A program made the translations under genes and the position numbers. This document shows, one piece after another, positions 8,178-25,692 of a stretch of 25,692 nucleotides of DNA. The DNA is taken from IMG/VR virus record IMGVR_UViG_3300008113_000324, positions 1-25,692 of that record; one strand, written 5' to 3'. Each line of letters starts with the position of its first letter. The stretch's first letter is position 1. The notes under the pieces were generated by a model. It was not told the origin of the DNA. It saw only the letters and a list, made by a program, of their open reading frames with translations, and did not search any database. The DNA comes from a virus.

Positions 8178-8424
8178 TGAAAATATAATCTCCGTACCCC
8201 GCAGCCGTTAGCTCGGTTGCTTCAGCATCTGTAATTTGTTCTTCATATCCACCGCGCAGGACTCGATCACATGTCTTAAGGAAGTCTCCCTGTGGTACAA
8301 CAATCGTTGTCCATGCACCATTCTTTTTGACTACTGTTTTACCAACAGTCTCAGACGCCCACCATAGTTCATAGCGACGACCGAGTTTCTTCTGGTAAGT
8401 AGGTCCACGGAAAATCTTTGCCAT
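8170..8424 (-). CDS. Small hypothetical virion-region protein (84 aa)
   Basis: I chose ATG at 8424 because it forms a TAATG overlap with the preceding stop; an in-frame GTG two codons earlier is the alternative. The protein is a mix of beta strands (KLGRRYELWWASETVG, AWTTIVVPQGDF) and an acidic end (ITDAEATELTAAGYGDYIFNV). No family recognised. Context (small proteins between capsid and connector) fits a neck, head-completion or decoration protein. Its 3' end overlaps the next gene by 8 nt. Confidence 0.6.
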   Translation of the reverse strand: MAKIFRGPTYQKKLGRRYELWWASETVGKTVVKKNGAWTTIVVPQGDFLKTCDRVLRGGYEEQITDAEATELTAAGYGDYIFNV

Positions 8425-9833: not shown

Positions 9834-10808
9834 TTAAGCAGCGATGCTTGACTTTGATGTAATGACGTAACGTGCTTCTGGACGGAAGATGTTCCATCCG
9901 AGAAGACCCTTCCAGCCCGCTGAGCGGAAGCGAAGAAGTGGATCTGTCATTGGTGAGATAACTGTCTTTGGCTCGTATGAAACAGCCTCAAGAAGAGCCT
10001 GCTTTCCGAGGATGACAGTCTTGTAGATCTTGTTCGCACCTGTACCAGAAGCAACTTCTGCACGAGGTGTTTCAATGTAACGAACCTGATCGAAGATACC
10101 GATCTCACCGTTCCAGAGGTTACCAACACCAGCTTCGGTGTAGGTGTGTGGCTGCTGCCATACGGCAACACCTGAACCTACAGCCTCTGAGCGGAGGTCG
10201 TATGAAACATCTGGGTGAATAAGTGCGGTGTAGAATCCACCGTCACGTGGCTGTACGTTTGCGCCACGAAGCTTAGCAACTGCCTTACGAGCAAGTGCTG
10301 AAGTGATGAACGCAGCGTTTGTAGATGCAGAAACGTCCTGTCCGTTAACAGTTGTCTCGTCAGCTGATGTTGTACCAGTGAAGCGACCTGTTGCTAGACC
10401 TGTAAGCTTTGCCCAAACCTGTGCGTCAAGTGTGTCGCGCATGTTGTAAGCAAGAAGATCTGCGATTGCTGGGTTGATTGATGAAATCAATTCAAGCTCA
10501 GCACGCTCTGTGTTAGTAACCAAGTTACCCCACTCGTCAACAGTTACAGAAACCTTGTCTGTGTTGTTGAGTGCAACAGCATCTGGTGATACTGTCTGTG
10601 TGAGGGCTGCAGTTACGCGAGCTAGATCCTTGTGTACCTGGAACACAACTGTGTTACCAGGGTTTGTTACGTCGCTTGGGCGCTTGTCCGCAAACTTGCG
10701 GAACATTGGCTCGGAGCGAAGGTTAAACTCTACAAGCTTGTCATACGAAACTTGTAGGAGGTTGGACAACGTGGATGTACCCGTTGCATTTGTAATTGTT
10801 GTAGGCAT
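9834..10808 (-). CDS. Major capsid protein, N4-gp56-like (324 aa)
   Basis: This forms the icosahedral shell. Supporting segments: the N-terminal helix YDKLVEFNLRSEPMFRKFA (22-40), NTVVFQVHKDLARVTAALT (52-70), VSVTVDEWGNLVTNTERAEL (87-106), and the C-terminal GLLGWNIFRPEARYVITSKS. This order matches the N4-gp56 family of HK97-fold capsid proteins as I know it, and the length is usual for it. A GAAGGA ribosome site precedes ATG, and the scaffold gene lies immediately upstream. Codons look more regular and GC-richer at third positions than in neighbouring hypothetical genes, as expected for a highly expressed gene. A hairpin follows the stop. Confidence 0.88.
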   Translation of the reverse strand: MPTTITNATGTSTLSNLLQVSYDKLVEFNLRSEPMFRKFADKRPSDVTNPGNTVVFQVHKDLARVTAALTQTVSPDAVALNNTDKVSVTVDEWGNLVTNTERAELELISSINPAIADLLAYNMRDTLDAQVWAKLTGLATGRFTGTTSADETTVNGQDVSASTNAAFITSALARKAVAKLRGANVQPRDGGFYTALIHPDVSYDLRSEAVGSGVAVWQQPHTYTEAGVGNLWNGEIGIFDQVRYIETPRAEVASGTGANKIYKTVILGKQALLEAVSYEPKTVISPMTDPLLRFRSAGWKGLLGWNIFRPEARYVITSKSSIAA

Positions 10809-10839: not shown

Positions 10840-11304
10840 TCATTGACCTCGAAGAATGCTAAGCAATTCTTCCTGTGAGCTGGCTCCCTCGACTCTTGAA
10901 GTCAAGTCAAGACCAACCTGTGGGTCGTATACATAGTCATCGAAGTTTGACATTTGCTCATATGTTTGAGCATCAGCGTCTGGTTCATAATAACCATCCT
11001 CTGATTCATCAACGGCAGTGATTCCAAAATCTTCGCCGTATTCTGTTAGCCACTCGGCAATTGCATCTGGATCAGCTTCGATCTCATCTGGAATGTAGCG
11101 AGCGATATTTGGATTAAGACCGTACCCTTCTAAGATCGCGGCGATTTCTGCTTCATGACTGTAGGTCTGGAATTCCATAATTAGATTATCGCGTTCCGCA
11201 ACTTGCTTGGAAAGTGAATCAATCTGCTTACGTAGTTTCTTTACTAGGTCTGTTCCGCTGTAATCCTCTGCGTCTTCGTAGAGTTCGTAGTCTTGTTCTG
11301 CCAT
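10840..11304 (-). CDS. Capsid assembly scaffold protein candidate (154 aa)
   Basis: The start at 11304 is preferred over an upstream ATG at 11364 because GGGAG lies 7 nt before it and the protein then begins cleanly (MAEQDYELYEDAEDYSGTDL). It is very acidic, with a predicted coiled coil at about 18-48 (LVKKLRKQIDSLSKQVAERD) and a helical C-terminus ending in SSQEELLSILRGQ. Acidic, coiled-coil, ~150 aa and placed directly before the capsid gene is the standard profile of a phage scaffold. No protease domain is seen. Confidence 0.75.
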   Translation of the reverse strand: MAEQDYELYEDAEDYSGTDLVKKLRKQIDSLSKQVAERDNLIMEFQTYSHEAEIAAILEGYGLNPNIARYIPDEIEADPDAIAEWLTEYGEDFGITAVDESEDGYYEPDADAQTYEQMSNFDDYVYDPQVGLDLTSRVEGASSQEELLSILRGQ

Positions 11305-11443
11305 TGTTTTTCTCCCTATTGTTAGTTGGACCCTCATCGGGTTTGCATCACACGTACTCCTCACCAGGGGAAGTGATTTATAGACGTGACGACTACCAGA
11401 CTAATACGCGTCTCCAGGGCTGGTCGGTCTGGGACGGATTCTG
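11305..11443 (-). promoter_or_regulatory. Longest internal non-coding gap; possible promoter for scaffold-capsid genes
   Basis: At 139 nt this is the longest gap inside the leftward array; nearly all other junctions are under 30 nt. The minus strand has TATAAA (11377-11382) with TTAGTC 16 nt upstream, a weak -35/-10 pair, and then a leader of about 65 nt ending in the scaffold ribosome site. The leader includes a small ACCC-GATGA-GGGT hairpin. A hairpin with TTTAAAA lies just upstream, in the end of the previous gene. Together these favour a separately controlled capsid unit, but the promoter is only a guess. Confidence 0.35.
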
Positions 11444-12832
11444 TTATACGTCGGCTGTTTTAAAGCGACGTCCAAGGGACGTCGTATCAATTGCACCGCG
11501 TTGCTGGAAGCGTGCTCGCTCTTGCGATGCAAGCTTCTTGGTTTTAATACCAACATCAGTTCCACCAACAAGTCCTAATTGTTGACGAACTAAATCTTCA
11601 CTACCTGCTGTTTCACCAGATAGACCAAGAAGTCTCTTGTAATCTTTCTGGCTAGTAACTGCAGCCTGGAAAGCTTCCTCTGCTTGAGCGCCTTTACCAG
11701 CTGTCTGAATTTCTTCAGCAAATGCCTTGGTTGCAGTTGTTCCTGCGCGGGTAGCCATGCCACCGATCTCGGCAGACTTATACTGCTTCTCGAGTTCAGG
11801 TGTACTAAAGTTGAAGCGACCTTCAAGAATGTTGAAAGCCTTATCCTTATCAAGTAGGTACGCAACCAAGTCATTCTGTGAAAGGTTGTAATAACTCTTA
11901 AGCGCATCAACAATGTTCTTGTCAGCCTTCTGTAGCGCAGACTGTGCAATGTTTACACGTGATGTAAGCTCACTTGGGCTAACGCCGTTAGCGATAAAGT
12001 TAGAAAAGTCTTCTTGTGTGTCGTAGAAACCAGTAGGCAATCCTGCGCTAGAGATGATATCTCTGAAGGTATCTTCTGTTTCAATGTAATCAGCTGGCTT
12101 AAGAAGGCGGTCGCCTGGGCGACCCTTGCCATCTGCCATACGCTTGCGAATTGTTTCGTTAGCGGGGAAGCGTGTCTTGTAAGCCTCGCTGTTGTAGATA
12201 GAGTTAAGAACTTGCGCTTCTGTAGGTGCAATATTGTCAGAGTAAACCTGGTCAATGCTGTCCATTAGTGACTTCATAAATGTGTCACCAAGACCTGTAT
12301 TCTCAAACATTGCCATAACAGCATCTTTTGCTGAATAATCTTTGTATTCGTCAATTACTTCTTCGGTTCCATCTGACATGACATTAACTGTCTGTACAGT
12401 TCCGCCAGTTTTGCGTACAGTTTTTTGCTTTACGATTGTTGGTTTAGTACCAGTGCCACTATCGCCACCTGTCCCTGTACCAGCACCAGCAGGAAGGGCA
12501 TACCTAACCCAGCTACCAGTTTTAGTTCCACCAATCCATGTGTATTTAAATCCTGGTTCTGGTGTCGGGACAATAGACTTGTTGTACAAAGGATCTGTTG
12601 CTTCAAGTTCTGCACGCTCAGCAGCTATTGCTGCATTTTTTTCTGCAAGAAGTTGTGTTGCAGTTTTCTTTGTTCCATCTGGGTTAAGACCTTGAGCAAC
12701 AAAAAGTTCTTTTTGCATTTCCTGAAGAGCAGTAAGGCGTGCTTCATTTTCTGCAAGTAAATTTTTAGCTTTTCCTAAAAGAGTTTCTAATCTTTTTTTC
12801 TCTGCTGCCTTCTGAGCTGCTGTCTGCGCCAT
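11444..12832 (-). CDS. Helical virion-associated protein (462 aa)
   Basis: Residues 1-80 are an Ala/Lys/Glu-rich coiled coil (KKRLETLLGKAKNLLAENEA). A short motif follows, YTWIGGTKTGSWVRY (97-111), seen in actinophage structural proteins in my memory, then a Gly/Thr linker (114-130). The remaining ~330 residues are helical, with segments such as AVMAMFENTGLGDTFMKSLM and FNFSTPELEKQYKSAEIGGM. No enzymatic motif seen. It is one of three consecutive helical proteins between the giant protein and the scaffold. In short-tailed phages this slot often holds internal (ejection) proteins, which is the favoured inference. The ATG is 3 nt past the previous stop. Confidence 0.55.
   Translation of the reverse strand: MAQTAAQKAAEKKRLETLLGKAKNLLAENEARLTALQEMQKELFVAQGLNPDGTKKTATQLLAEKNAAIAAERAELEATDPLYNKSIVPTPEPGFKYTWIGGTKTGSWVRYALPAGAGTGTGGDSGTGTKPTIVKQKTVRKTGGTVQTVNVMSDGTEEVIDEYKDYSAKDAVMAMFENTGLGDTFMKSLMDSIDQVYSDNIAPTEAQVLNSIYNSEAYKTRFPANETIRKRMADGKGRPGDRLLKPADYIETEDTFRDIISSAGLPTGFYDTQEDFSNFIANGVSPSELTSRVNIAQSALQKADKNIVDALKSYYNLSQNDLVAYLLDKDKAFNILEGRFNFSTPELEKQYKSAEIGGMATRAGTTATKAFAEEIQTAGKGAQAEEAFQAAVTSQKDYKRLLGLSGETAGSEDLVRQQLGLVGGTDVGIKTKKLASQERARFQQRGAIDTTSLGRRFKTADV
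11466..11484 (-). terminator. 8-bp perfect hairpin followed by TTTAAAA inside a gene end
   Basis: CGACGTCC (11466-11473) and GGACGTCG (11477-11484) form a perfect stem with a 3-nt loop. On the minus strand it is followed by CTTTAAAA, and it lies in the last ten codons of the 462-aa gene, just before the long gap ahead of the scaffold. It could end or pause the upstream transcript. The T run is short, so function is uncertain. Confidence 0.35.
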
Positions 12833-12835
12833 TGT

Positions 12836-13789
12836 TTACCCCAGGAATCCAAAATCTTGTAGGATCTTTTGACCCATACCCGTATATTCTTCTTTAGCCC
12901 GTTCAGTGAATTGCCACTTTGGGCTCTTGCGTGCAGCAGTCTTTGCTTGATAAAGGTTCATCGGTGTGACGTTTCCTTTTTCATCTTGCTGATTTAAAAT
13001 GCGATTAACAAAATCATCGTTGAGATCAAGTGTTTCTTGATCTATCTCCCATGTGTCAGAAATTGCTTTAAGCCAAGGGTCAGCTGCTTCGCGCAGTGTT
13101 TGACCACGGCTAAGTTGTGCTGTTAAACCAGGAAACATGGACGCTGCTGAGTTAGTTAGATCAGCTTTAATGTCTTCTTCAGTAATGTCGCCAGCTACTA
13201 ATCCACGAACGCTGTTTTGCAACCATTGGTCAAAACCCTTGTTTGACTTAGTTGACTGAAATCCATAATCCCAAGCCATTTCGTAAAGTTGGTTAGCCAG
13301 TGTTTCTGTGTTACCGCTAAGGTCATAAAGAGTTATGCCATTGACTATACGCTTCTTAGTGAAGTCAATTGAAGCAGCAATTGTCTTGTTGATAAATGTG
13401 TCATCATAAACAGTAAGCTTGCCATCCACTCGCTGAGATTTCATCATGAGCTTTTCAGCCATAGCTGTTGCCTCTTGTGCGGTAATTGGAATACCAGCTG
13501 CCTTGTACTTAGTAAGCAAAGTGTTGGTATTTCTAATCAAGTCAGCTTCAAATGTAGTTGGATCAGAAGTCTTGGCTATCTGAAACTTACGAAAGTCTTC
13601 ACTGTTCTTGAGGAACCATTCAGACTTTTGTAGTTCTGCCATCTGAAGTTTTGGGTCAACAATCTTTCCCTTAAGAATTCTATTTAAAGCATCTTGCAAA
13701 GTTTTATCAGAAGCAAGAATTGACGCAGCGATAGAGTACTTAGCAGCAAGTTGTTCGAGTGAGAACGTGTCTTGTGTTGGCTCTGCCAT
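12836..13789 (-). CDS. Helical virion-associated protein (317 aa)
   Basis: All-helical composition without a recognisable enzyme motif. Notable segments: SLEQLAAKYSIAASILASDK at the start, DGKLTVYDDTFINKTIAASI in the middle, and SRGQTLREAADPWLKAISDT toward the end. It resembles the tail-channel or internal proteins of short-tailed phages in composition only. The ATG is 2 nt after the previous stop (TAATAATG), and its own stop is 3 nt before the next gene. With its two neighbours it likely forms a functional set. Function not assigned. Confidence 0.55.
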   Translation of the reverse strand: MAEPTQDTFSLEQLAAKYSIAASILASDKTLQDALNRILKGKIVDPKLQMAELQKSEWFLKNSEDFRKFQIAKTSDPTTFEADLIRNTNTLLTKYKAAGIPITAQEATAMAEKLMMKSQRVDGKLTVYDDTFINKTIAASIDFTKKRIVNGITLYDLSGNTETLANQLYEMAWDYGFQSTKSNKGFDQWLQNSVRGLVAGDITEEDIKADLTNSAASMFPGLTAQLSRGQTLREAADPWLKAISDTWEIDQETLDLNDDFVNRILNQQDEKGNVTPMNLYQAKTAARKSPKWQFTERAKEEYTGMGQKILQDFGFLG

Positions 13790-13791
13790 TA

Positions 13792-14520
13792 TTAAATTAC
13801 CTGCCCAATTCTATTAGGGTCTGATAAAGACTGGTTAATAAGATCTAAAAATGTTCTAACAGCAAAGTTCTCTGCATAGTCAGGCATGCTGCGTGCATAG
13901 CTTTTTGCGAATTCTGTTGGGTCAAACCCAGTGGTTTGTGAACCCTTGCTTACAGACGCACCAGGTGAGGTGGTTGTTTGACCAACATACTTAGATGGTT
14001 CCTTAAGAGCACGTTCGTTAGCACCTTTTTGGTATGCAGCAATTTCTTTAGCGGTCGCTTCGCGACCAACCTCTTGACTAAATACTTTATTGATATCTGC
14101 TGCAGCACTTGATGTGCTGAAGGTGGTTGTTCGGATATCTGTTTGATTTGTTGTACCGTATCTACTGCTTTCATCTTCATCACCGAGGACTCCAGGTGTT
14201 GCGTAATCAAGATAATAACTTGGATCAATACCAAGCTTATTACCAGCCAGTGGATTGTTAAGAGTCTGTGTCCAGTCTACGCCCTTGTTCCAAAGCTTTG
14301 TTAATGTCTTGCGGTCTGTAGCAAAGCCACGAGCTGCAGCTGCAGAAGCAAATACCTGATAAGCAACAAGATTTGTCTCTGGTAAATTAGCGAACCAGTT
14401 TTTTGCTTCCGTTGGAGATGCACCGCGACCTGATGGTTGATCCGTAAATCCTGGTATAAAAATCTTTCGAACGTAATACTGTGGATCGTCAGTTAAAGGT
14501 TTTGTTGGATCTGTAGCCAC
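13792..14520 (-). CDS. Virion-associated protein of unknown role (242 aa)
   Basis: Start is GTG at 14520. The AGGAG ribosome site is embedded in the last codons of the upstream giant gene, so the two genes are tied together. The protein contains SSAAADINKVFSQEVGREAT (about residues 136-155), a segment followed by EIAAYQKGANERAL that I have seen in structural regions of phages without an assigned role. It also has an N-terminal YYVRKIFIPGF. The C-terminus is acidic-helical (FLDLINQSLSDPNRIGQVI). Family not recognised. Confidence 0.55.
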   Translation of the reverse strand: MATDPTKPLTDDPQYYVRKIFIPGFTDQPSGRGASPTEAKNWFANLPETNLVAYQVFASAAAARGFATDRKTLTKLWNKGVDWTQTLNNPLAGNKLGIDPSYYLDYATPGVLGDEDESSRYGTTNQTDIRTTTFSTSSAAADINKVFSQEVGREATAKEIAAYQKGANERALKEPSKYVGQTTTSPGASVSKGSQTTGFDPTEFAKSYARSMPDYAENFAVRTFLDLINQSLSDPNRIGQVI

Positions 14521-14521
14521 G

Positions 14522-17500
14522 TTATCTCCTAATTACTAATGAAATGTCAAGCTCTGGCATTGATGATAAATACCGAGCAGCGAATACACCGAACTCATCG
14601 GATGCATTCTGAATAAAGTCGTAGTGAAATTGAGAGAACCCTGCACGCAAGTCATACTTGCGAGCCTCTGAACTTCCAGCTTCCTCGTACATCGTGTGGA
14701 ACTTGGCAGCTTGTGCTGCCCAGATAGCAATCTCATCCCACTTGGTATTCACTTTAGATGCGTGAGCCATCCACTTCTCATCCTTAAGAATTACCTGGAT
14801 TACAGGGAACACTTCCTTGTAGAAGTCCTTTGGCTTAGGACGTGAATTCTGCCAGCCTGGATATTTAGTAGCAATGTATTCTTCTCGCTCTTTAAAGTCA
14901 TCCTGAATACCAGATAGTTCGTATCGTGGGTCATAAGTAGAAAGAATACCTAATTCGTACATACGAGCATCACGTTCTTGTGATGCAGCATTGTACTCAG
15001 CCCAGCCAATATTGGCTTCAACATCCTGCTGGATCTCTTCTTCTGTCTTTTCGCGAGTAATCTTTGTACCACCCTTGCCAGGGAAGTTTAGATACTTATA
15101 GATAGAAGCAACCGTTGATGAGTATGTATTGGTTAGCTCTTCACCGTACTGTGTAGATAGCATGTTTGCGTACTTCATATTAGTACGAGCGATCTTTTCC
15201 AGAAGCTCTGGGTTATCACGGATAACCTTGATGTCTGTGTATGAAGCAGATAGGTTTGCTACGTTTTTACGGTTAGAACCCACCAAGATAATGCCATCAA
15301 CGCCCCACTCCTTGCGGAATGCTGCATCTGCTGCATCGTAATCACCTTGGTTTTCCTCAACCAACTTAGAGTAATACTCTGTCGCTGCTCGAGTTACTGG
15401 GTCAAATGTTACAGAAATTGGCATATTGAACTGTACAAATGCGCGAATGAAATTAACAATACCTTCACTCTTGGCAGCATCTGACATTGATGGAGGTTCT
15501 CCAACTTGCCCGTTACGATACCAATCATTCATTGCTACTTTGTAGCTAGAGTAAACTCCATCCCAATAGCGATCTGACTTGTCCCAGCCAAAGGCTTTGA
15601 ACAAAGATTGCTGGTATGAAGGTAGTACTGCGCCAGCCATTGTAGTAAGAAGGTTCCCACCTTCTGCTGGATATCCGCCATATAGAAGACTTGTCTCGTA
15701 GAATTCATCACCGAATGCTGTGCGAAGACCTTGTTCAAGTTCTTCTCCGTAAATCTTCCATGGTGTATTAATACCAAAAGAGTTATTAATAAGGCTTGAG
15801 AGTGTAGCTCCACCAATCCAAGAGATGCTTGGATCAGATAGCATGAACTCAAGTTGCTTAGGGTTAACCTTCATTCCGCCACCGCGTTCGTCAACAAATG
15901 GCGCAAGAGCGCCCTTAACTCCCTTTGGCAGTTTGTTATATAGCGGGAAGCGTACGGTTACAGGCGTTCCTGCAGGTACATCCATGATTGACTTGTAGGT
16001 ATTACCCTCTTCGTCCTCATAAGCCTCGAATGAATCGAATGCTTGCTGTACTTGTGCATACCAATAAGCGTTCATTGGGTTCTTAGCCATCAATCGCAAG
16101 GCAACTACCTGGCTATTGAAGAATGCTAGCGGGAATGACATGGCATAACGCGCTTGGTACATACCATTTGTCAAACGACGTGATGAATACAGTGTCTGTT
16201 CTACGCGAGCAAGCGCACGACGACGTGCGATTTCATTAAGCTGGTTGTTAACAAAGTAATCAGTTGGATCTCCACCAGTTCTACGTGAGTTTATAATAAG
16301 AGCGCGTAGTTCTTCTTCCCAATGTTTCTTAAATAGGGGAGCACGTACCATTTTTGTTTCAGCGTCAGCTAAAAATCTCCAAGCAGCGTCTGTAACTCCA
16401 CCAACTCGGGCAGCAACGCGGTCATACTTGTTCAAATCGTTAAGGTTGATGTTCGGACCCTGGATTCGCTGTGGCAAATCTGGGTTCTTTTCTAGAAGAA
16501 CACGCATTTCATCAACAGATACAGGACGACGCATGATTAAATCACGCACTTCCTGAGTTGGGTACATAGCACGTACCTTGGCACTGGTCTCAGAGATCCA
16601 GTCGAGCATATCTTCTTGTGTGTTGACACCACGATCGCTCATACGACGACGCCATTCACGTCCAGCATCACCTGATTTATAAATCCAGTTAAGGATTTCT
16701 GTATCATTGACGCCACGGAAGATCATTCCTAGTGGAAGTTCAAGGCTGTTGCGAACCTGTCGGTTAGCAATATGTGTCAAGGCGTTAAAGTAAGCCTCTG
16801 TATCGGTACGGTCTATAGTAACGAAGCGACGGCTTTCAGCCTTGATGCGTGCGTTAATTTCTGATCGCGTACCAACAGAATAAAAGTTTTCAACGGTGTC
16901 AACTTCTGACATGTAAGCAGTAGCTCCACGTTGGTTAGGATCCATAAGACCCTTGATTGTGTAAGTCTTGCCGTCTATTTCCCACTCTTCAGCGACTTGA
17001 CCAAGACGCTTCATCTGAGCCCTATCGCCACGGGCGAGAATTGCAGGAGCAATCTTTGCCTTCTGCTTATCAATGATAGAGGCAATACCCTGGACAATGC
17101 GTGCGCTTGATTCAACAGCGTCGGTTGCTTCTCTAAATGCGGTATCTGCTTCAAAGAGTGCATCATCTGCAGCATGAAGAGCATCATCAGCCAAAGCTTG
17201 GTTAGCTTTGCTTGCTTTCTTAGCAGCTGCAGCTGCGCGTTCCTGCGCTGCGCGGGCTTTTTGCCAAGCCTTTTCAGCTGCTACTACAGCGACTTTATCC
17301 TTTTCCCATTGTGCAATATGCATTGGGAACTTCTTGTCACGAGAGATTGTACGAATCTGCTCAATGACAGAGTTTTCCTGGCGACGAGCTTTAAATCCTG
17401 GCATGCCAGGGATAAATCTGGAAATATTTTCTGCGCGAATACTGTTGTTATAGATTGCGTTACGCACGCCTTGGTTTGCGTTTCCAAACATCCCAAGACT

Positions 17501-19465
17501 TTCGGTAGCCATAGATGCACGCATCATTGGGTCAACGATAGAGTTCTTAGGAATGTAAGCGATACGAAGTAAGTTCAAGTTGCTGAAGACCATGTTAGCA
17601 ACATCAAAGAAAGAGGCTAGGCTCATCGCTGTTTGCGATGCATATGCACCACGAACCTGACCCTTGGTTACATAGTCTGAACCTTCCTTTTTCATGTGAA
17701 GGATAATTTCATTTTCCAAGCGACGGAAGTCGAGCATTGGAATTGTTTGAGCTTCGTTAGAAAGATCAATAAAGTTATTGACGAGGTTGATAGCACCGTC
17801 GTCACCTGGAATCATTCCGTTGTCAACTACGTACTTCTTAAGAGTCTGACGTGTTTCATTTTTGCCAGATACCCACTTGGTAATTTGAGCAATGATTGCT
17901 TTGTTCTCAAGTGCTGTATTTGGGTTGGCAATGTCAATGAGTTCATCAACGCCGTAGCGACGACCAAGCTCAAGGAATACTCTTTCTTCGATGTTTGCTA
18001 GTGCAACTGCACGAGCTGTATCTGTATCAGCAGCAAGGTAGCGCTCAACCATGTCGCGCTTAAACTGTGAGCCTTCTGTTCCGCGTAAGAATGAAAGACG
18101 GTTAAGGTCTGAAAGTAAATCGTTTGCTGCTTCAAAGCGACGTGGGTTAGAAATGTTGATGTGACCCTGTGGTCGCCCTGAACCTTGGTACGCAATAAAA
18201 CGAATGACGCGGTCGTATGGTCCTGACTGGTAGACTTGAGTCTTCCAGCTTCCATCTCCTGCCTTGCCAAATAGTTGTGCATCACCAAACTTTGCAGCTG
18301 TAATGAGCTTATTCTTAGCAAGTGCTACTGTCTCGTACGCTGCAAACTTTCCTGGTACAAAGTCTTCACGTGCTCCCGCTGCTGTCTTGGAAGCAAAGTC
18401 CTCAAGTGCGCGGGCAAAAGTTTTGTCTTCAGCTTTCTTCGCTTCAATGATGCGGTTGTAACGCTGAGTAAGATTAGGTGTTAGATTCTCTTCGGCAATC
18501 TTGCCCCAGTCATCTAATGGATCATACCTCATACCAAAGTTATCAATGTGGTCAGCCTCAATCGGGCGACGTCCCATAAAACGCGAAAATGCTGCTGCAT
18601 CTCCACGCTCTGCAAGAAGGTAATCTGAAACATCGTCGTATGTCTTAAGGCGAGATACAATCTGTGCTGTGCGAACTGGGTTAGCTGTCTCGGCAACTAA
18701 TGGGTTAGCTGAAAGACGTGTCAGATTAGTTTCATCAACTGCGTCTTTCATAAGAACAGCAAGACCCGAAGGTGCTGGCGTTCCGTCTGCCTTGTTACCC
18801 CATTCGGTAGCTAACTTAAGATTGTTTTTAAATGCTGCATCATCTGTTGCGGTACGGATAACCCCAGGTCCAACAACTTTTTTAGTTCCTGCACGAACTG
18901 CAGTTCCTGCACCTTTAGTTGCAGCCAAAGCAATAGCTAGATCGGTTGATCCTGAAGCAATAATACCAAGCCATTCATCTTTGAATGCCTTGTTGCGCTG
19001 CTTGTCGTCAAAGACGTCAAAGTCATTGTCTAAATATGTTGGCGTAATCGCATCTGGGAGCATGTCACTAACAAGTGACGCAGCACCAGATGCAACAGCT
19101 TGACCCATTGAAATATCTTTAGAACGCTGCTTAGCGTAAACAAAACTATTAAGACCTTTGCCACGTGCGATAGCTTGTGGTGTAAGAGCAATAGCAGAAA
19201 CGGTTTGGGTTACTGGTTGGATAACTCTGTTAGCAAGTTCCATCGCTGCCATTGCAACGTTGGTTCCTGTGCGGACAAAAAGATTACCCTTTTTGCCTTT
19301 TTCAATTGCTGAAGTAAGGACTTCACCAACCTTGTTTTCTACCTTGCCGACTTTTGTATCGTCTACGTTTTTCTTTTGTTCTTTTACGAAGCCCTCAACT
19401 GGTGCAGGTTGAACTGGTAGTTCAGTATTTGTAAAAGTATTTCCCCAGACGGATGTGTTACTCAA
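14522..19465 (-). CDS. Giant virion-associated protein, candidate ejected internal protein (1647 aa)
   Basis: This is the largest gene of the window. The start is TTG at 19465, with AAGGAG 10 nt upstream inside the preceding 53-aa gene; the genes overlap by 8 nt. Visible layout: a low-complexity N-terminus, an apolar Ala/Gly stretch near residues 170-190 (STDLAIALAATKGAGTAVRAG), a segment LRIAYIPKNSIVDPMMRA near 630, and an Ala/Lys coiled coil near 735-800 (ARAAQERAAAAAKKASKANQ). A conserved-looking core lies near 1085-1130 (YQARYAMSFPLAFFNSQVVA), and the helical C-terminal third ends in DISLVIRR. No catalytic motif was recognised. It is too helical and too early in the order to be a fibre, and it is not a tape measure: there is no long coiled-coil repeat and no tail-tube genes. 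In podoviruses this position holds proteins ejected with the DNA. Confidence 0.6.
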   Translation of the reverse strand: MSNTSVWGNTFTNTELPVQPAPVEGFVKEQKKNVDDTKVGKVENKVGEVLTSAIEKGKKGNLFVRTGTNVAMAAMELANRVIQPVTQTVSAIALTPQAIARGKGLNSFVYAKQRSKDISMGQAVASGAASLVSDMLPDAITPTYLDNDFDVFDDKQRNKAFKDEWLGIIASGSTDLAIALAATKGAGTAVRAGTKKVVGPGVIRTATDDAAFKNNLKLATEWGNKADGTPAPSGLAVLMKDAVDETNLTRLSANPLVAETANPVRTAQIVSRLKTYDDVSDYLLAERGDAAAFSRFMGRRPIEADHIDNFGMRYDPLDDWGKIAEENLTPNLTQRYNRIIEAKKAEDKTFARALEDFASKTAAGAREDFVPGKFAAYETVALAKNKLITAAKFGDAQLFGKAGDGSWKTQVYQSGPYDRVIRFIAYQGSGRPQGHINISNPRRFEAANDLLSDLNRLSFLRGTEGSQFKRDMVERYLAADTDTARAVALANIEERVFLELGRRYGVDELIDIANPNTALENKAIIAQITKWVSGKNETRQTLKKYVVDNGMIPGDDGAINLVNNFIDLSNEAQTIPMLDFRRLENEIILHMKKEGSDYVTKGQVRGAYASQTAMSLASFFDVANMVFSNLNLLRIAYIPKNSIVDPMMRASMATESLGMFGNANQGVRNAIYNNSIRAENISRFIPGMPGFKARRQENSVIEQIRTISRDKKFPMHIAQWEKDKVAVVAAEKAWQKARAAQERAAAAAKKASKANQALADDALHAADDALFEADTAFREATDAVESSARIVQGIASIIDKQKAKIAPAILARGDRAQMKRLGQVAEEWEIDGKTYTIKGLMDPNQRGATAYMSEVDTVENFYSVGTRSEINARIKAESRRFVTIDRTDTEAYFNALTHIANRQVRNSLELPLGMIFRGVNDTEILNWIYKSGDAGREWRRRMSDRGVNTQEDMLDWISETSAKVRAMYPTQEVRDLIMRRPVSVDEMRVLLEKNPDLPQRIQGPNINLNDLNKYDRVAARVGGVTDAAWRFLADAETKMVRAPLFKKHWEEELRALIINSRRTGGDPTDYFVNNQLNEIARRRALARVEQTLYSSRRLTNGMYQARYAMSFPLAFFNSQVVALRLMAKNPMNAYWYAQVQQAFDSFEAYEDEEGNTYKSIMDVPAGTPVTVRFPLYNKLPKGVKGALAPFVDERGGGMKVNPKQLEFMLSDPSISWIGGATLSSLINNSFGINTPWKIYGEELEQGLRTAFGDEFYETSLLYGGYPAEGGNLLTTMAGAVLPSYQQSLFKAFGWDKSDRYWDGVYSSYKVAMNDWYRNGQVGEPPSMSDAAKSEGIVNFIRAFVQFNMPISVTFDPVTRAATEYYSKLVEENQGDYDAADAAFRKEWGVDGIILVGSNRKNVANLSASYTDIKVIRDNPELLEKIARTNMKYANMLSTQYGEELTNTYSSTVASIYKYLNFPGKGGTKITREKTEEEIQQDVEANIGWAEYNAASQERDARMYELGILSTYDPRYELSGIQDDFKEREEYIATKYPGWQNSRPKPKDFYKEVFPVIQVILKDEKWMAHASKVNTKWDEIAIWAAQAAKFHTMYEEAGSSEARKYDLRAGFSQFHYDFIQNASDEFGVFAARYLSSMPELDISLVIRR

Positions 19466-19619
19466 TTGGCAACTGCTCCTTCCGAGACGTCAGGTCTTCT
19501 AATAATTCAATTCGATCATCATCGGATTCAAAATCCATGCGAGCTATATCCCACGCAACTGGAGCCATATCAAAGCCAAGGTATTCGAGATTCTCTTCGA
19601 ACTTCTTGAAAACTTTCAT
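19458..19619 (-). CDS. Small acidic protein overlapping both neighbours (53 aa)
   Basis: It begins with ATG in a TAATG overlap with the preceding stop and ends with TAA inside the start of the giant gene. The sequence is MKVFKKFEENLEYLGFDMAP at the N-terminus, then a strongly acidic middle (DFESDDDRIELLEDL) and a basic end. It is short, but coupled on both sides, and it carries the ribosome site used by the giant gene. Probably a real small gene that also serves to couple translation of the TTG-started gene. Function unknown. Confidence 0.6.
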   Translation of the reverse strand: MKVFKKFEENLEYLGFDMAPVAWDIARMDFESDDDRIELLEDLTSRKEQLPIE

Positions 19620-20041
19620 TATTGGATCTCCGTCTGGCTCCGTAAATATTTGACAAAGGCTTTCATTGTGCCTGTTGATTGTGGTGAGTCTGCATAAGCA
19701 GACATAAGTGGCATGTATTTAGCAAGCATGCTTAGATCCTGAAGTTGGGTATCTACAGCGTTTGGTAGTCCAAGCACTGCACGCCCAGCTCCAGGTCCAG
19801 CATCAACACCTTCGGTTACATACTCATTAGGACGGCGTGTTTCCGCATTAAACGGAATCACACCTTCGCTAATGTTTGCACTTCCTGCCATTGGTGCTCC
19901 ACCTTGGTCTGCTTGGAATTGCTGTTGCTCGCCATAAGCTGCATTAGGCAAATCCATTTTCCCCTGTGCTGGTATATCTGTTCGCTGTGAGAACGAACTT
20001 GGACCAGATACAACACCTGGGTTAGGCTGCATCATTGACAT
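19619..20041 (-). CDS. Conserved hypothetical protein of the portal-proximal block (140 aa)
   Basis: The N-terminus is Pro/Gly/Gln-rich and probably disordered (PNPGVVSGPSSFSQRTDIPA, then YGEQQQFQADQGG), with a helical C-terminus (LSMLAKYMPLMSAYADS, then MKAFVKYLRSQTE). The RTD...A.YGE..Q.Q..Q..APMA pattern matches short unassigned proteins near portals in actinophages as I recall them. It starts 8 nt after the LysM gene stop. A head-internal or portal-accessory role is inferred. Confidence 0.6.
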   Translation of the reverse strand: MSMMQPNPGVVSGPSSFSQRTDIPAQGKMDLPNAAYGEQQQFQADQGGAPMAGSANISEGVIPFNAETRRPNEYVTEGVDAGPGAGRAVLGLPNAVDTQLQDLSMLAKYMPLMSAYADSPQSTGTMKAFVKYLRSQTEIQ

Positions 20042-20049: not shown

Positions 20050-21627
20050 TTATTTCTTTGGAAGATTTACTTTAGTTCCTGACCAGATCATGTTTCCACC
20101 CTTGTACTTAGGGTTCTGCTTGAACTTCTTGTTCAAGGCATGGATGTCTGCAAGTGATACTCCTGCACGCTTAGCAATTGACCAAAGGTTGTCACCGCTC
20201 TTTACGATGTACGCGTCTCCTGTAATAGGTGACTTGCTTGATCCTCCTGAAGATCCTCCTGAAGAACCACCCTTGCTTGAACCTCCTGAAGATCCTCCTG
20301 AAGAACCTCCTGAAGAACCTCCTGAAGATCCACCGCTGGCTCCACCTGATGAACCTCCAGCTGCTCCAGCTGCAGGCTTATTCTTGTAATAATCCGCAAT
20401 CTGTGCTGGAGTTGGACGAGTCGTAGAACCCGCCTTCCATGCAGCAGTTCCTGGAACTAGGCTTGATCCATCTGGACCGTAGCGAAGATTCTTATTATCT
20501 TGAGCTCTCTTATTTGCTAGTTCTTTGTCGTACTTAACTTGTAGTTCATCGGCTTTTGTACCACCGCGCTTTCCTACAATACCCATAGTTATTGAGTTAA
20601 GGATGTTCTCGCCAGATACGCCCAAAGACTGGACCATATCTTTCCATTTGGAATCTGGAGTTTTTCCTCTAAGTGCAGCAATCTTGCGCTCAAGTTCATC
20701 TTTGCGTTCCTGGTCTTTAACTGATTGACCAAGTTGGGCAATTTCCAAGACTAGACCAAGTAGTAATCCACCCTTAACAAACTTCTTAAACTTGCCACCC
20801 TTTTTAACGACAGTGTCACTGCCAGGAACTGGTGTTACTCGTGATGTAGTTGTTGCAACTGTGCCTGTACGTGTACTAACAACAGTACCCTTTGGACGAA
20901 TTGCAAGTTCACGAGAAGCTGAAAGCTTGCCTTCTTTTGTAAGCTTTGCTTGTGTTTGTTTTAGCTTTTCATCTTCCATCGCAGTAAGCGATGCATCTGT
21001 AATCGACTTAAAACTTTTAACCTTAGTGCTTTTAGGCTTCTTGGTCTTTGGCTTTGCTTCTGCGTCTGGTGTTGCAGCTGCTCTTTGGCTAGGAAGCTTT
21101 GATTCAAAGAAAAGAGCTTTGTTGAGAGCAGACTTTGGCTTGACACCTTCACGAATAAGTTTTTCGTAACGAGCTTTACCTTCTGGAGTCTTAAGAGTCT
21201 TGTCAACAGCAGTTGATGTAGTAGCAGGCTTCTTAACAGTTGGCTTCTTTTTTGGCGCTGCTTTAGAAGAAGCAGCTTTCTTTGTTGCAGCCTTCTTTTT
21301 TGTTACAGGCTTTTCTGCTACGCCATCTTCGGCAGCTACACGAGCGCGGAACTTCTCCATTGCTACGCGTCTTTCACGAGCAATGCGTTCTTTAGCTGTT
21401 TCAACTGGCTTAGTCTGAATCTTGTTGCCTTTATCGTCTGTGATAAAGTTGCCTTTGGCTTCCTTGCTGACTTCCTTTAATGCTTCTTTGTCAACTAGCT
21501 CTAACTTTGCCATTGGATCTTTTAGTCGAGCTTGTGGTTTACCAGAGAATACTTTCTTGGCATCAGCCTTGGCAGCCGAACGTGCCTGACGAAATTTCTT
21601 TGGCTTTGTTGGTTTCTTCGCTGCCAT
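20050..21627 (-). CDS. H1-like Lys-rich virion protein with C-terminal LysM domain (525 aa)
   Basis: Three parts are visible. (1) The first ~150 residues are Lys/Ala/Pro-rich with histone-H1-like tracts (KKAATKKAASSKAAPKKKPT), predicted to bind nucleic acid. (2) Near 275-320 an apolar segment (GGLLLGLVLEIAQLG) is followed by a charged helix. (3) A Gly/Ser repeat linker (about 420-469) leads to a LysM fold at 473-523 (YIVKSGDNLWSIAKRAGVSL), complete with the xxGDxLWxIA hallmark. LysM binds N-acetylglucosamine chains of peptidoglycan. The gene sits between portal and capsid genes, so it is a structural protein rather than a lysis enzyme, and no hydrolase domain is present. It may help deliver DNA and anchor the particle to the wall during entry, or be packaged internally; both are inference. 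Confidence 0.7.
   Translation of the reverse strand: MAAKKPTKPKKFRQARSAAKADAKKVFSGKPQARLKDPMAKLELVDKEALKEVSKEAKGNFITDDKGNKIQTKPVETAKERIARERRVAMEKFRARVAAEDGVAEKPVTKKKAATKKAASSKAAPKKKPTVKKPATTSTAVDKTLKTPEGKARYEKLIREGVKPKSALNKALFFESKLPSQRAAATPDAEAKPKTKKPKSTKVKSFKSITDASLTAMEDEKLKQTQAKLTKEGKLSASRELAIRPKGTVVSTRTGTVATTTSRVTPVPGSDTVVKKGGKFKKFVKGGLLLGLVLEIAQLGQSVKDQERKDELERKIAALRGKTPDSKWKDMVQSLGVSGENILNSITMGIVGKRGGTKADELQVKYDKELANKRAQDNKNLRYGPDGSSLVPGTAAWKAGSTTRPTPAQIADYYKNKPAAGAAGGSSGGASGGSSGGSSGGSSGGSSGGSSKGGSSGGSSGGSSKSPITGDAYIVKSGDNLWSIAKRAGVSLADIHALNKKFKQNPKYKGGNMIWSGTKVNLPKK
20240..20370 (-). repeat. Tandem 12-bp repeat encoding the Gly/Ser linker
   Basis: Near-identical 12-nt units of the form GGATCTTCAGGA / GGTTCTTCAGGA on the minus strand encode GSSG repeats before the LysM domain. 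The high identity of units, beyond what protein coding demands, points to recent slippage expansion. The number of units probably varies among related phages. Confidence 0.75.
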
Positions 21628-21800: not shown

Positions 21801-23576
21801 TTATGCTGGAATTGAGCGAGTTACTCTCGCTGATAGATTTGGATTTCCGCCACCTGTAAGACCTGCTAGCAATTCCTGCATAGCTGGTCGACCCTGTGGC
21901 ATCTCTGGCATAGGTCCACCCATGCCTTGTTCTGCTGGCATAGCCTCTTGTGGGGCTTCTGCTGGCATGCCTAGAGCTGTTGGCTCAGGCTTTGGTTCTT
22001 CTGGCTTAAAAGCCTTGGCGACTGCGTCTTCAAGCGGTATGCCTGATTTACGTGAGTCGATTACGCTAGCCATAGCGCTAACGATCTTCATAGGATCTTG
22101 ACCTGCCATTACCATCTGTGGAATTGCTTGAGCAAGACCAGAGATAGATGATTTCATTGAGTCACGAAGTTCTTCAATATCGATAGCGCGTTCTTCTTCT
22201 CCAGCATTAATGGAGATAGGAAGATTGCGACGTAGCATTCCGCGAGAGATTAACTTATCTCCGCGTGCTTGTAGACCCCAAACCAATGCGCGGTTTGGAT
22301 CTAGACCTGCCATTAATCCGTACTCTACGGTTACACCGTAGTTGCCCTTAACGTCTACAGATGGCTTGTACTTTAACTTGTAAGGTACTCCATTTGCTGT
22401 AGCAGATACTTCTCGTTGAAGTTCAGGGAAGTAAATTTCATCGATTGCAAGAGCAAACGATATGGCTTGTCCAATCGCTTCACCTAGAATTGATTGGTAG
22501 ATCTTTATTTGAGAATCATAACCAGCCATAAGTGCTTTCACACCCTGACCAGTTACGATAGAACCTTCGCTTTGCCCAGCACGTGCTTGAGGAAAACGGG
22601 TTCCAAGTTTCATTTCATCGGCAAGAACGTTGTTCTCTGCGAATGCAAACTGTGGTACGTCGAGATTTACTCGGCGGATTTTCTCTGGAGAGTTCGAACG
22701 AATAACAGCATCAGGACCAATGGAGAGCTGAGTAACGTCATTAGGCAAAGCAAGAGGAGCTTCAACAGATTTTTGAACAGCTTGCATAGTGAGAAGAGCA
22801 AGACGAGCTTTCGCTGCATAGACTGGGAGGACGTCGTCGAACTGTCCACGCGTTTCGCCGTCGAGCGAAGGACGCTGAGCAACAGCAACTGGGACCTCAC
22901 CGAGTTTGTTTGGTGTTTCTGCAAGAACTAATCCTCCTCGGTCAAGAATAAACATCACTGTCTTCTTCTTGTCCATCCAACGAACTACGCTAATAAGCGA
23001 GTTCTCATCACCAGATCGTGTGAAAGAGTTCTTTGCCAAGATAGCATCTGCATGCTCAGGGAACTGAGCTGCAACATCTCCTGCTTTACGCTTGTATACA
23101 CGAGCATAAGTGTTGATATTGCCAAATCGATCTTGGTCATAATAAGCACCCATAGAGTTTTCAACATGGATGTGTGGTCTCTTGTCCTTAAAGTTAGGTT
23201 CAACTCGTAGAACAACGAAACCGTATGTAGATAGTTGGTCTGCGCCACGCAGAAGTTCCGTACCAAGTCGAGATGATGCTACGTAATAGTTGCAAATCTT
23301 TGTACGCTTGTCAGCTTTGGTACGCTGGGAATCATCAAGAGATGAATCTCCAGCAGCAGTAATGGTAGGAAGAACACCGACTTGCTCAGCAACATCCCGA
23401 GCAACGACGTCAATAAGGTTGGCAACGATTGGACGTGACCAATTGCCAGAAGGAAATAAGCCAGGGAATACCTGCTCAGCGTTGCCTGCTCTTACCAAGG
23501 CAACCTCGCGCATGCGCTTATCGCGCTCGGAGTTTCGAGTTACTAATTGCTCGAAAGCATAAACTAATTCTTTCAT
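21801..23576 (-). CDS. Portal protein (591 aa)
   Basis: This is the dodecameric ring at the packaging vertex, through which DNA enters and leaves the head. Evidence: it follows the terminase directly (4-nt gap), has the usual length, and has the usual composition. The N-terminal region VKANLID-like RPIVANLIDVVARDVAEQVG, a middle with YGFVVLRVEPNFKDKRPHIH, and the MAGLDPNRALVWGLQARGDK segment (about 435-455) are typical of portals of actinophages as I know them. The last ~70 residues are Pro/Met/Gly-rich and probably flexible (MPAEQGMGGPMPEMPQG). There is no strong ribosome site, so translation likely couples to the terminase gene. Confidence 0.8.
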   Translation of the reverse strand: MKELVYAFEQLVTRNSERDKRMREVALVRAGNAEQVFPGLFPSGNWSRPIVANLIDVVARDVAEQVGVLPTITAAGDSSLDDSQRTKADKRTKICNYYVASSRLGTELLRGADQLSTYGFVVLRVEPNFKDKRPHIHVENSMGAYYDQDRFGNINTYARVYKRKAGDVAAQFPEHADAILAKNSFTRSGDENSLISVVRWMDKKKTVMFILDRGGLVLAETPNKLGEVPVAVAQRPSLDGETRGQFDDVLPVYAAKARLALLTMQAVQKSVEAPLALPNDVTQLSIGPDAVIRSNSPEKIRRVNLDVPQFAFAENNVLADEMKLGTRFPQARAGQSEGSIVTGQGVKALMAGYDSQIKIYQSILGEAIGQAISFALAIDEIYFPELQREVSATANGVPYKLKYKPSVDVKGNYGVTVEYGLMAGLDPNRALVWGLQARGDKLISRGMLRRNLPISINAGEEERAIDIEELRDSMKSSISGLAQAIPQMVMAGQDPMKIVSAMASVIDSRKSGIPLEDAVAKAFKPEEPKPEPTALGMPAEAPQEAMPAEQGMGGPMPEMPQGRPAMQELLAGLTGGGNPNLSARVTRSIPA

Positions 23577-23580: not shown

Positions 23581-25470
23581 TCACATTCTCACGGCTCGCT
23601 GTGTTGAAGCGAGATCATCCAGATTGATTATGTAACGACCTTCCATGTCAGAACGAGTTGCAAACTCGTTAGCCATAAAGTTCGGTACGTTGGTAGAAGC
23701 GATTAGAATCTCGCGGGCTACGATCTCACAGAACCACAGTGCCATCACTGCGTCCATCTTGAGTTGCTTGCCCTGCTTACCTGGTTGCCAGGTCACGAGT
23801 TGTTCAATAAGTTTCTTGACGTGTTCATTCTTCGAGCTGTCTGGTAACTCAATTAAGTTATCACCAGCATGCTTGAAGTTGTTGTTGAGTCCATCTCGCT
23901 TAATGACGGACCCAAACAAAGGAGCGAGTGAGGCTACGCCGAACTCGGGATCCTGTTTGTTATTACCTGTGTAGTGTGGTCGGTAATTAATACCACGTGT
24001 AGCGAGGAAGTTTCGAATTTCCTCGTCCTGTGTTAGGAATAACTGAAAAGCATTGGACTCTACAATCACCGTATGTGGGTGATACGTATCCGTCCATTCC
24101 CTGATAAGAGATCTGATAGCTGCAGGTGTAGGGCTTGTCATGACGTGAACGTCCATTACATAGCGTTTGTTTGTCCTGCGGTCTACCGCATAGGCGATAG
24201 CAGCTGTATCTCCAGACATTGCTGGATCGATACCAATAATTCGATAGAAGTTCGACGAATTATCAGGGTGACCTGCTGCGCCTGCAACTAAGGAGCCCGA
24301 CTTTCTCATTCCGTTTACAGCGCCTCTGACGCATGTCGGGTCGAAGATTGCATTCTCCGCGATATCGAGGTTCTGGTAAACCAGTGACCACTTGGAAGGT
24401 CCTGCCTCGTTACGAACTGCCGTAAGACGTTCGCCTGTCCATCGATCAAACATGCCGTTCTCGTCTGGCACGTCAGTGTCAGTAAGAGGTTGTTCGGTCT
24501 TAGCCCAAAGAGTTTTCCAATCCTTTGGGTTGTCTGCATATTCCAAGACTGCAGGCATGGACAAATATGACCACGGAAGGATGCCATCCGTGTAATGCTG
24601 TGGGTTGCGTAGTTCTTTATATAGATCAACTGCAGATACTCGTGTACCAACTACCAAGAGTTGACCACCACCAGGCGGGAGACGAGAGGCAACTTCCTGC
24701 CGAATCCATTCCTGTTGCTTAGCCCATTCACTTGCGTTGGACAACGTCACTACGTCGTCCAGGACTATTAAATCTGCGCGGTTACCGTAGACCTGACCAC
24801 CCATACCAATAGCTTCAACTGTTGGGTCTTTGGCGTCATTGTCTCGGATATCTCCACCAAGATAGATCTTGGTCGCCGACCACTGGTCGGCTGTTGCTTT
24901 GTAACCATCGGCGGGTCCGAAGGACGCCTGTAGGTCTGCATACCGAGGATGCGTCAAGCGTTGCTTGATCGCATACAAAAACTTCTTTGCCTGCTCTTGG
25001 GTCTTGGAGATAACCATGACCGAAATGTTAGGATTCTTAACTATGCGGTAGGTCACATAGTTAATTGTGATCGTCATAGTCTTGGCATGGTTTGGCGGGA
25101 CGTTGACCAGTAAACGGGACAACCCACCTGAACCTTTTTCAAAAACCATGGCTGGGTCTAACCAGCTTGGATCTCTACCTTCCAACATGTCAACAACGTT
25201 GAGCATGTGGGGCGGAACTTTAGTACCAAGGAACTTCTCAGAGAAACCAGCAAAGTCATCAAGATTAGACCGAGCGTCTACCGCGAGGTCCTGTGTTCTA
25301 AACCGAGCATTATCCATATAGGCAGCGAAGCCATCAGCTTCGCGCCGTTGTGTGTCATACCAAGAGCGACTTCGCCCGACCACTTTCAGTGCGTCGGCGA
25401 TGGTGCGACCTTGGCGTACCAAATCGATTAACTCTTTACGAGCCTCTTCTGGTGTTAATTGGCGATCCAT
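23581..25470 (-). CDS. terL: Terminase large subunit with an N-terminal helix-turn-helix segment (629 aa)
   Basis: The DNA-packaging motor. The ATG at 25470 is preferred because GGAGG lies 5 nt before it; a GTG at 25497 would add nine residues. ATPase: Walker A variant VNVPPNHAKTM (about 122-132), Walker B LIVLDDV (234-240), and a coupling motif near LLVVGTRVS. Nuclease: IGIDPAMSGD (412-421, first Asp), VIVESNAF (468-475, Glu), and MDAVMALWF (572-580, last Asp), giving the RNase H-like acidic triad. Residues 11-43 (GRTIADALKVVGRSRSWYDT) look like a DNA-binding HTH usually found in small terminases, so TerS function may be fused, or a separate TerS lies outside the window. It is the first gene of the leftward array. 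Confidence 0.92.
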   Translation of the reverse strand: MDRQLTPEEARKELIDLVRQGRTIADALKVVGRSRSWYDTQRREADGFAAYMDNARFRTQDLAVDARSNLDDFAGFSEKFLGTKVPPHMLNVVDMLEGRDPSWLDPAMVFEKGSGGLSRLLVNVPPNHAKTMTITINYVTYRIVKNPNISVMVISKTQEQAKKFLYAIKQRLTHPRYADLQASFGPADGYKATADQWSATKIYLGGDIRDNDAKDPTVEAIGMGGQVYGNRADLIVLDDVVTLSNASEWAKQQEWIRQEVASRLPPGGGQLLVVGTRVSAVDLYKELRNPQHYTDGILPWSYLSMPAVLEYADNPKDWKTLWAKTEQPLTDTDVPDENGMFDRWTGERLTAVRNEAGPSKWSLVYQNLDIAENAIFDPTCVRGAVNGMRKSGSLVAGAAGHPDNSSNFYRIIGIDPAMSGDTAAIAYAVDRRTNKRYVMDVHVMTSPTPAAIRSLIREWTDTYHPHTVIVESNAFQLFLTQDEEIRNFLATRGINYRPHYTGNNKQDPEFGVASLAPLFGSVIKRDGLNNNFKHAGDNLIELPDSSKNEHVKKLIEQLVTWQPGKQGKQLKMDAVMALWFCEIVAREILIASTNVPNFMANEFATRSDMEGRYIINLDDLASTQRAVRM

Positions 25471-25692
25471 GTTCCTCCAGTACCTGTAGGGGTCCACAGG
25501 GGGTTGGACAGTAGTATCCCCACTTAAGCATATATATCTTATCGGCGGGCATTAAGCCCGCCTCAGAAGGCTCAATAAGTATTTCGCCTTATACTTACAT
25601 AGGGGTCTAGAGCGTCGGCGTGTTTCAAGGGGGTAGCCCAATATATTTTTATTTATTTCGGTGATCTCAGTATAAGTCCTGGTCAGAGCTGT
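25471..25692. promoter_or_regulatory. Leader/control region upstream of the terminase
   Basis: No gene is visible here. It holds a perfect 7-bp hairpin GGCGGGC (25544-25550) / GCCCGCC (25556-25562) with a 5-nt loop, without a T run on either side. A second 7-bp hairpin is TAAGTAT (25576-25582) / ATACTTA (25591-25597). Two mutually exclusive short stems lie at 25483-25509 (CCTGT/ACAGG and GTCCA/TGGAC share bases). An AT-rich patch with TATATAT (about 25530-25537) on the minus strand could hold a -10 box for the late array, but no matching -35 at correct spacing was found. Likely promoter/leader by position. Confidence 0.4.

What the first reader, a model, noticed from the sequence alone, without database searches (positions are those of the whole stretch)
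14522..19465. 1647-aa unassigned giant protein with TTG start in a short-tail phage
It takes about a fifth of the window and has no recognised enzymatic motif. With no tape-measure or tube genes nearby, the ejected internal protein role is the best fit, but the sequence does not obviously match the known T7 or N4 internal proteins. It may contain a new domain such as a channel, transglycosylase-like or host-takeover activity.
Basis: inference. Interest (0 to 1): 0.6.

Follow-up and report, generated by a model that had tools for sequence, protein, structure and literature searches.

The report
Giant ejection protein of short-tailed actinophages
The 1,647-residue protein is a widespread but unnamed structural protein of short-tailed viruses of Actinobacteria, most likely packed in the virus head and pushed into the cell with the DNA; sister viruses plug different enzyme domains (ADP-ribosyltransferase, ParB-like, acetyltransferase) into its middle, which this copy lacks.

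Summary
The ORF is real: minus strand, 19465 down to 14522, TTG start, 1647 aa. It belongs to PHROG family phrog_10618 (unknown function; E 4e-279). The same gene lies in the same gene order, between portal and capsid genes, in Streptomyces podophages (Beephvirinae), in Planktophila phage F5 and in over 100 viral contigs. The Streptomyces relative Abafar has a 16 nm tail, so a tape-measure role is excluded. No enzyme, T7 gp16 or PDB match was found for this protein.

(1) In a sister clade, extra domains sit in frame at one site of the giant: ADP-ribosyltransferase (PF03496, above cut-off) or ParB-like. Their state changes at least 8 times on the tree, even between near-identical giants. The site maps to the turn of a predicted helical hairpin at window residue about 752, empty in the window's clade. 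(2) Planktophila phages E7 and F5, isolated on one host, are 96-99% identical on both sides of an 8.5 kb island that holds most of the 140-aa gene, the giant and the next two genes.

Best reading: an ejected internal virion protein forming one module with its neighbours, with an optional effector port. Packaging and ejection are inferred; no virion proteomics was found.

The parts
14522..19465 (-). 1647-aa giant virion protein, phrog_10618 family; predicted nearly all-helical
   Evidence: (E 4.2e-279)
17033..17332 (-). predicted long helical hairpin of the giant (residues about 712-750 and 753-811, turn at 751-752 = about 17210-17215); the turn is the place equivalent to the cargo insertion site of sister-clade giants, empty here (position approximate: coiled-coil alignment)
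   Evidence: same break in two overlapping models, pLDDT 73-92 over residues 701-800; mapping; inserts
19458..19619 (-). 53-aa gene that overlaps the giant's start by 8 nt (likely translational coupling)
19619..20041 (-). 140-aa conserved protein (phrog_8200), equivalent of Immanuel3 gp7
20050..21627 (-). 525-aa protein: basic low-complexity N-terminus, hydrophobic stretch, Gly/Ser linker, C-terminal LysM; candidate cell-wall-binding virion protein
13792..14520 (-). 242-aa protein, equivalent of Immanuel3 gp10
12836..13789 (-). 317-aa protein: the phrog_6654 core without a wall-acting N-terminal module (Streptomyces phages carry NlpC/P60 or SLT there; checked close relatives carry LysM)
11444..12832 (-). 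462-aa protein, phrog_8424, equivalent of Immanuel3 gp13
10840..11364 (-). 174-aa acidic protein before the capsid gene (scaffold candidate), phrog_7813
9834..10808 (-). major capsid protein, phrog_1357
21801..23576 (-). portal protein, phrog_104
23581..25497 (-). terminase large subunit, phrog_38

Best explanation
The protein is the giant internal (ejection) protein of a lineage of short-tailed phages of Actinobacteria. It is made late, packed into the head near the portal together with its neighbours (140-aa, 242-aa, 317-aa and 462-aa proteins), and expelled through the short tail ahead of or with the DNA. Outside the virion its mostly helical chain refolds to help carry DNA across the cell wall and membrane, while the phrog_6654 neighbour brings the wall-acting part (NlpC/P60, SLT or LysM in relatives). 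In sister phages the turn of a long helical hairpin in the middle of the giant serves as a port where an effector domain (Alt-like ADP-ribosyltransferase, ParB-like or GNAT-like) rides into the host; in the window's clade that port is empty. SHOWN: the gene, its family, conserved gene order, the short tail of a relative, the inserts, their common site and exchange, and replacement of the module as one cassette. INFERRED: packaging in the head, ejection, channel role, and delivery of the inserts.
For: Same gene in the same order in Beephvirinae and in Planktophila phage F5: profile-profile 98.0% / E 1.5e-13 over 1318 columns with Streptomyces gp9; 99.7% / E 3.5e-26 over 1398 columns with F5; 100% / E 4.7e-58 over 1500 columns with the whole F5 clade. 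Terminase, portal, 140-, 242-, 317-, 462-, 174-aa genes, capsid and fibre are collinear. Abafar, with a 1644-aa orthologue, is a podovirus with a 16 nm tail (PMC11536984). Neighbours gp11/gp12 in Streptomyces phages carry NlpC/P60 (3.6e-30) and SLT (2.5e-05, above cut-off) domains on the phrog_6654 core shared with the window's 317-aa protein; LysM is there in checked close relatives. ART inserts in sister-clade giants pass Pfam's cut-off (55.9, 60.7, 50.3 bits against 23.4) and match Alt-like RNA-polymerase ADP-ribosyltransferase PHROGs; T4 Alt is injected from the head and such domains are typical of predicted injected proteins (PMC5512222; PMC9503650). One common site, at least 8 state changes on the tree. 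E7/F5 differ by a cassette of most of the 140-aa gene, the giant and the next two genes, flanked by 96.3% and 98.8% identical DNA, which suggests a co-adapted complex. Residues invariant across clades are mostly Gly/Pro/aromatic/Arg, with no His/Cys/Glu/Lys: no sign of an active site in the core.
Against: No virion proteomics or cryo-EM was found for any member. No detectable similarity to T7 gp15/gp16. Structure predictions are poor (mean pLDDT 54.8 and 58.6). No strong transmembrane segment. The window protein itself carries no effector domain. The ParB-like and GNAT-like calls are weak.
Confidence: 0.75

Rival explanations
1. It is mainly an injected effector carrier (a polyvalent protein) with no part in DNA passage: packed in the head to act in the host cytoplasm.
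For: Sister-clade giants carry ART, ParB-like or GNAT-like domains, domain types described for phage polyvalent proteins (ART, ParB).
Against: 30 of 40 sister-clade giants on the tree and all window-clade and Streptomyces-clade giants examined carry no effector, yet keep the full 1600-1700 aa core; the core has no Pfam effector or LPD domain.
Confidence: 0.12
2. It is a permanent structural part of the short tail or tail hub, not ejected.
For: Constant length; place in the structural module; neighbours carry wall-acting domains typical of tail tips.
Against: Effector domains of cytoplasmic type inside a part that never enters the cell would make little sense.
Confidence: 0.09
3. It is a tail tape-measure protein.
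For: Long, helical and coiled-coil-rich; weak structural matches to tape measures (best E 1.8e-3, TM-score about 0.1).
Against: At 1.5 A per residue it would make a tail of about 247 nm, while Abafar with a 1644-aa orthologue has a 16 nm tail; no tape-measure profile match; no tail-tube gene recognised.
Confidence: 0.01
4. It is a non-virion protein made in the infected cell (host takeover, or an assembly chaperone or scaffold).
For: No proteomic proof of a virion location.
Against: Fixed place between portal and capsid genes, swapped as a unit with late structural neighbours.
Confidence: 0.03

Closest known systems
Beephvirinae (Streptomyces cluster BF podophages) gp9, e.g. Immanuel3 YP_009836128.1, and PHROG phrog_10618
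   Same: Same PHROG (2536 and 930 bits), same length (about 1648 aa), same gene order, full-length profile alignment
   Different: Only about 20% identity; neighbours carry NlpC/P60 and SLT enzymes in two gene copies, absent from the window's single copy
Giant protein of Planktophila phage LanE43AprF5 (OX376641), isolated on 'Ca. Planktophila' (PMC10202952)
   Same: Full-length profile match, same gene order
   Different: About 20% identity; its clade has optional effector inserts; the record carries no annotation
T7 gp16 / gp15 internal core proteins
   Same: Works like: large helical protein encoded in the structural module of a short-tailed phage, with the wall-lytic domain optional or elsewhere
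   Different: No sequence or profile similarity; no lysozyme/SLT domain in the protein; different gene position
Phage polyvalent proteins (Iyer et al. 2017, PMC5512222) and T4 Alt
   Same: Sister-clade members carry ART and ParB-like effector domains in a giant late-module protein
   Different: Single port with one interchangeable domain instead of strings of domains; no LPD domain found in the family; window copy empty
Pagevirus (Bacillus phage Pascal) gp19, 1672 aa with LPD38
   Same: Giant protein of similar size in a podophage with a related capsid and terminase
   Different: No profile similarity; LPD38 present; different gene position

Membership tests
phrog_10618 / Beephvirinae gp9 family | full-length profile match | tested here: met
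   E 4.2e-279, residues 28-1645 of the protein on 24-1719 of 1722; against Streptomyces gp9
phrog_10618 / Beephvirinae gp9 family | gene position after portal and the 140-aa gene, before the 242/317/462-aa genes and the capsid gene | tested here: met
phrog_10618 / Beephvirinae gp9 family | short-tailed virion | not testable with these tools
   shown for the relative Abafar (16 nm tail), not for the window's phage
T7 gp16-like internal virion proteins | sequence or profile homology to gp16 | tested here: not met
   hhalign probability below 1% for each family profile
T7 gp16-like internal virion proteins | N-terminal transglycosylase domain (T7 group only) | tested here: not met
   no Pfam match; SLT sits in a neighbour in Streptomyces phages
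T7 gp16-like internal virion proteins | predicted transmembrane regions | tested here: inconclusive
   weak maxima 1.35 (165-183) and 1.21 (1336-1354), not shared by all clades
T7 gp16-like internal virion proteins | located in the head and ejected | not testable with these tools
   needs mass spectrometry or cryo-EM
N4-type virion RNA polymerase | polymerase domain | tested here: not met
Tape-measure proteins | length matches tail length; profile match | tested here: not met
Phage polyvalent proteins | several effector/LPD domains in one polypeptide | tested here: not met
   for the window protein; some sister-clade members have one effector domain
Phage polyvalent proteins | encoded among late virion genes | tested here: met

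The most novel reading that the evidence does not exclude
A giant ejection protein with a single cargo port: phages of freshwater Actinobacteria exchange ADP-ribosyltransferase, ParB-like and GNAT-like domains at the turn of one helical hairpin and so fire interchangeable enzymes into the host together with their DNA. The whole ejection module is further exchanged between phages of one host as a cassette. It would follow that such ADP-ribosyltransferases of freshwater actinophages act on bacteria rather than as 'Trojan horse' toxins against grazing protists.
Probability: 0.5. Interest if true: 0.75.

Novelty: new variant of a known kind. Interest (0 to 1): 0.55.

Why it matters
How short-tailed phages of Gram-positive Actinobacteria bring DNA through a thick wall is little studied; the T7 and P22 models are for two-membrane hosts. 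This family gives a likely core component, in cultivable systems (Abafar on Streptomyces; E7 and F5 on 'Ca. Planktophila'). The exchange of effector domains at one site gives a natural experiment on payload delivery. It also makes testable a published idea (PMC6802176) that ADP-ribosyltransferases of freshwater phages are toxins against protists: an ADP-ribosyltransferase built into a virion protein would point to Alt-like injection into the bacterium instead. Whether the phages of that paper are the same ones was not checked.

Tried and rejected
Plus-strand reading: 69 stops. Pfam, PDB sequence and PDB fold searches: nothing significant; the best fold matches are mostly coiled-coil hairpins. 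BFVD fold search: finds sequence relatives (best at 47-49% identity) and, weakly, tape measures at TM-score about 0.1, not meaningful for a low-confidence model. T7 gp15/gp16 and Pagevirus gp19 as homologues: rejected. Search of bacterial genomes for relatives or prophages: 177 pattern matches, none a relative. Intein or intron as cause of the longer sister-clade genes: rejected, the inserts are in-frame domains with Pfam/PHROG matches at one site. E7's giant as a certain homologue: not shown (best 13% probability, pairwise E 0.002, against the Streptomyces family). Papers on proteomics of Beephvirinae: none found.

Full report
The observation. The ORF is on the minus strand, 19465 to 14522, 1647 codons. 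The TTG start has AAGGAG 10 nt upstream and overlaps the stop of a 53-aa gene by 8 nt; most homologues have ATG at that place. Among 64 window-clade ORFs that lie inside their contigs the length is nearly constant (1633-1686 aa, apart from one fusion and a few broken or partial copies), at 37-98% identity to the window protein in the set compared. The gene is real.

What family it is. PHROGs puts it, end to end, in phrog_10618, function unknown (E 4.2e-279). Pfam and PDB sequence searches give nothing significant. The tblastn search of named phages found only OX376641. The capsid and 462-aa genes led to Streptomyces podophages of the Beephvirinae. There, gp9 (1648 aa, 'hypothetical protein') sits in the same place, hits the same PHROG with 2536 bits and aligns to the window family over 1318 columns (98.0%, E 1.5e-13). 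An HMM comparison showed that terminase, portal, 140-aa gene, giant, 242-, 317-, 462-, 174-aa genes, capsid and fibre are collinear.

The phage. Several relatives are contigs of about 41 kb. A 65% relative, G002, encodes WhiB (PF02467, 5e-19), a sigma factor and a DnaB-like helicase. WhiB is held to be restricted to Actinobacteria and their phages (PMC10202952), so the host is very likely an actinobacterium. OX376641 and OX376640 are the cultivated Planktophila phages F5 and E7, isolated on 'Ca. Planktophila' LanE-43 (PMC10202952). Abafar, a Beephvirinae member with a 1644-aa orthologue, is a podovirus with a 16 nm tail (PMC11536984). At the 1.5 A per residue used in that paper, a tape measure of this size would give about 247 nm, so that role is out.

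Anatomy. AlphaFold2 on residues 1-830 and 690-1647 with 19-sequence alignments gave low confidence (mean pLDDT 54.8 and 58.6) but almost pure helix. The well-predicted part (pLDDT 73-92 over residues 701-800) is a long helical hairpin with a turn at 751-752, found in both overlapping models. Fold searches gave no significant PDB match and in BFVD essentially only relatives. Residues invariant from Streptomyces to Planktophila phages are mostly Gly, Pro, aromatic and Arg; none is His, Cys, Glu or Lys. This speaks against an enzyme core.

Neighbours. The 317-aa gene is the core of phrog_6654. In Streptomyces phages two copies of that core carry NlpC/P60 (3.6e-30) or SLT (2.5e-05, above cut-off) N-termini. 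In two checked relatives of the window clade the N-terminus is a LysM, and ORF lengths suggest similar extensions in most; the window, L002 and L026 have almost no N-terminal extension. The core thus looks like an adaptor for wall-acting parts.

The cargo site. In the F5 clade, some giants are 150-220 aa longer. The extra stretch is in frame and always at the same point. One type is an ADP-ribosyltransferase: PF03496 at 55.9, 60.7 and 50.3 bits against a cut-off of 23.4, and phrog_802, Alt-like RNA-polymerase ADP-ribosyltransferase. The other type has a GNHR motif and weak ParB-like matches (phrog_1033, 6e-5; PF02195, 0.017, below cut-off). On a tree of 40 giants built without the insert (30 empty, 6 ParB-like, 4 ART) the state changes at least 8 times, and pairs of near-identical giants differ in cargo (L182 ART / L183 ParB-like; L185 ART / L193 ParB-like). 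The site maps to window residue 752/753, the hairpin turn; the alignment in this coiled-coil region is approximate. None of the window-clade or Streptomyces-clade giants examined has such an insert. A giant of the E7 type (L239) carries a short GNAT-like insert in a similar position (after E7 residue 757; PF00583 22.6 bits on the isolated insert against a cut-off of 20.7, but 17.5, below cut-off, in the whole protein).

The module swap. The paper on E7 and F5 noted an 8 kb island of hypothetical genes that differs between the two. Alignment shows 96.3% identity up to E7 position 8372 and 98.8% from 16922. The island is most of the 140-aa gene, a 1764-aa giant and the equivalents of the 317- and 462-aa genes. 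E7's giant is not demonstrably homologous to the others, though its two downstream neighbours are. Exchange of exactly these genes, and not portal or capsid, suggests that they form one physical machine.

Interpretation. Position, size, helical nature, lack of an active site, short tail, wall-acting neighbours and cassette behaviour together fit an internal ejection protein. The effector inserts add an argument that the chain enters the cytoplasm: Alt-type ADP-ribosyltransferases act there, Alt is known to be injected from the T4 head, and ART and ParB-type domains are typical of predicted injected proteins (PMC5512222; PMC9503650). Packaging and ejection remain inferred. By sequence it is not a member of the T7 gp16 family, nor by architecture a polyvalent protein; it would work like the first and, in the sister clade, partly like the second.

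Verdict. An observation that holds, a first interpretation that is largely right, and an unnamed family that deserves a name. The window's copy on its own is ordinary for its lineage; the port and the module swap in its sister clade are the interesting part.

Noticed in passing
L095, L100, L182, L185, L186, L187 (ART) and L096-L099, L183, L188, L193, L216, L217, L219 (ParB-like): Effector domains at one site of sister-clade giants, exchanged between near-identical phages.
   Followed up: yes
L239:2374-7941, insert after E7 residue 757: GNAT-like insert (96 aa) in an E7-type giant.
   Followed up: partly
L064:8372-16922 (phage E7) against L046 (phage F5): The unexplained 8 kb island between two phages of one host is the giant-protein module.
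   Followed up: yes
window:20050-21627 (-): 525-aa LysM protein next to portal: basic repeat-like N-terminus, hydrophobic stretch and Gly/Ser linker; no counterpart found in Streptomyces phages.
   Followed up: no
G010 (82,688-base contig of L038): Contig of double length with two different giants 40 kb apart: two related phages joined or a composite assembly.
   Followed up: no
L024, L040, L129: Giant gene broken by stop or frameshift in L024 and L040 (possibly assembly errors); upstream 53-aa gene fused in frame to the giant in L129.
   Followed up: no
L060:18364-23382 (Bacillus phage Pascal gp19): Giant protein of similar size with an LPD38 domain, related to proteins of Pelagibacter, Vibrio and Stx phages, in phages with a related capsid but no detectable homology to this family.
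   Followed up: partly
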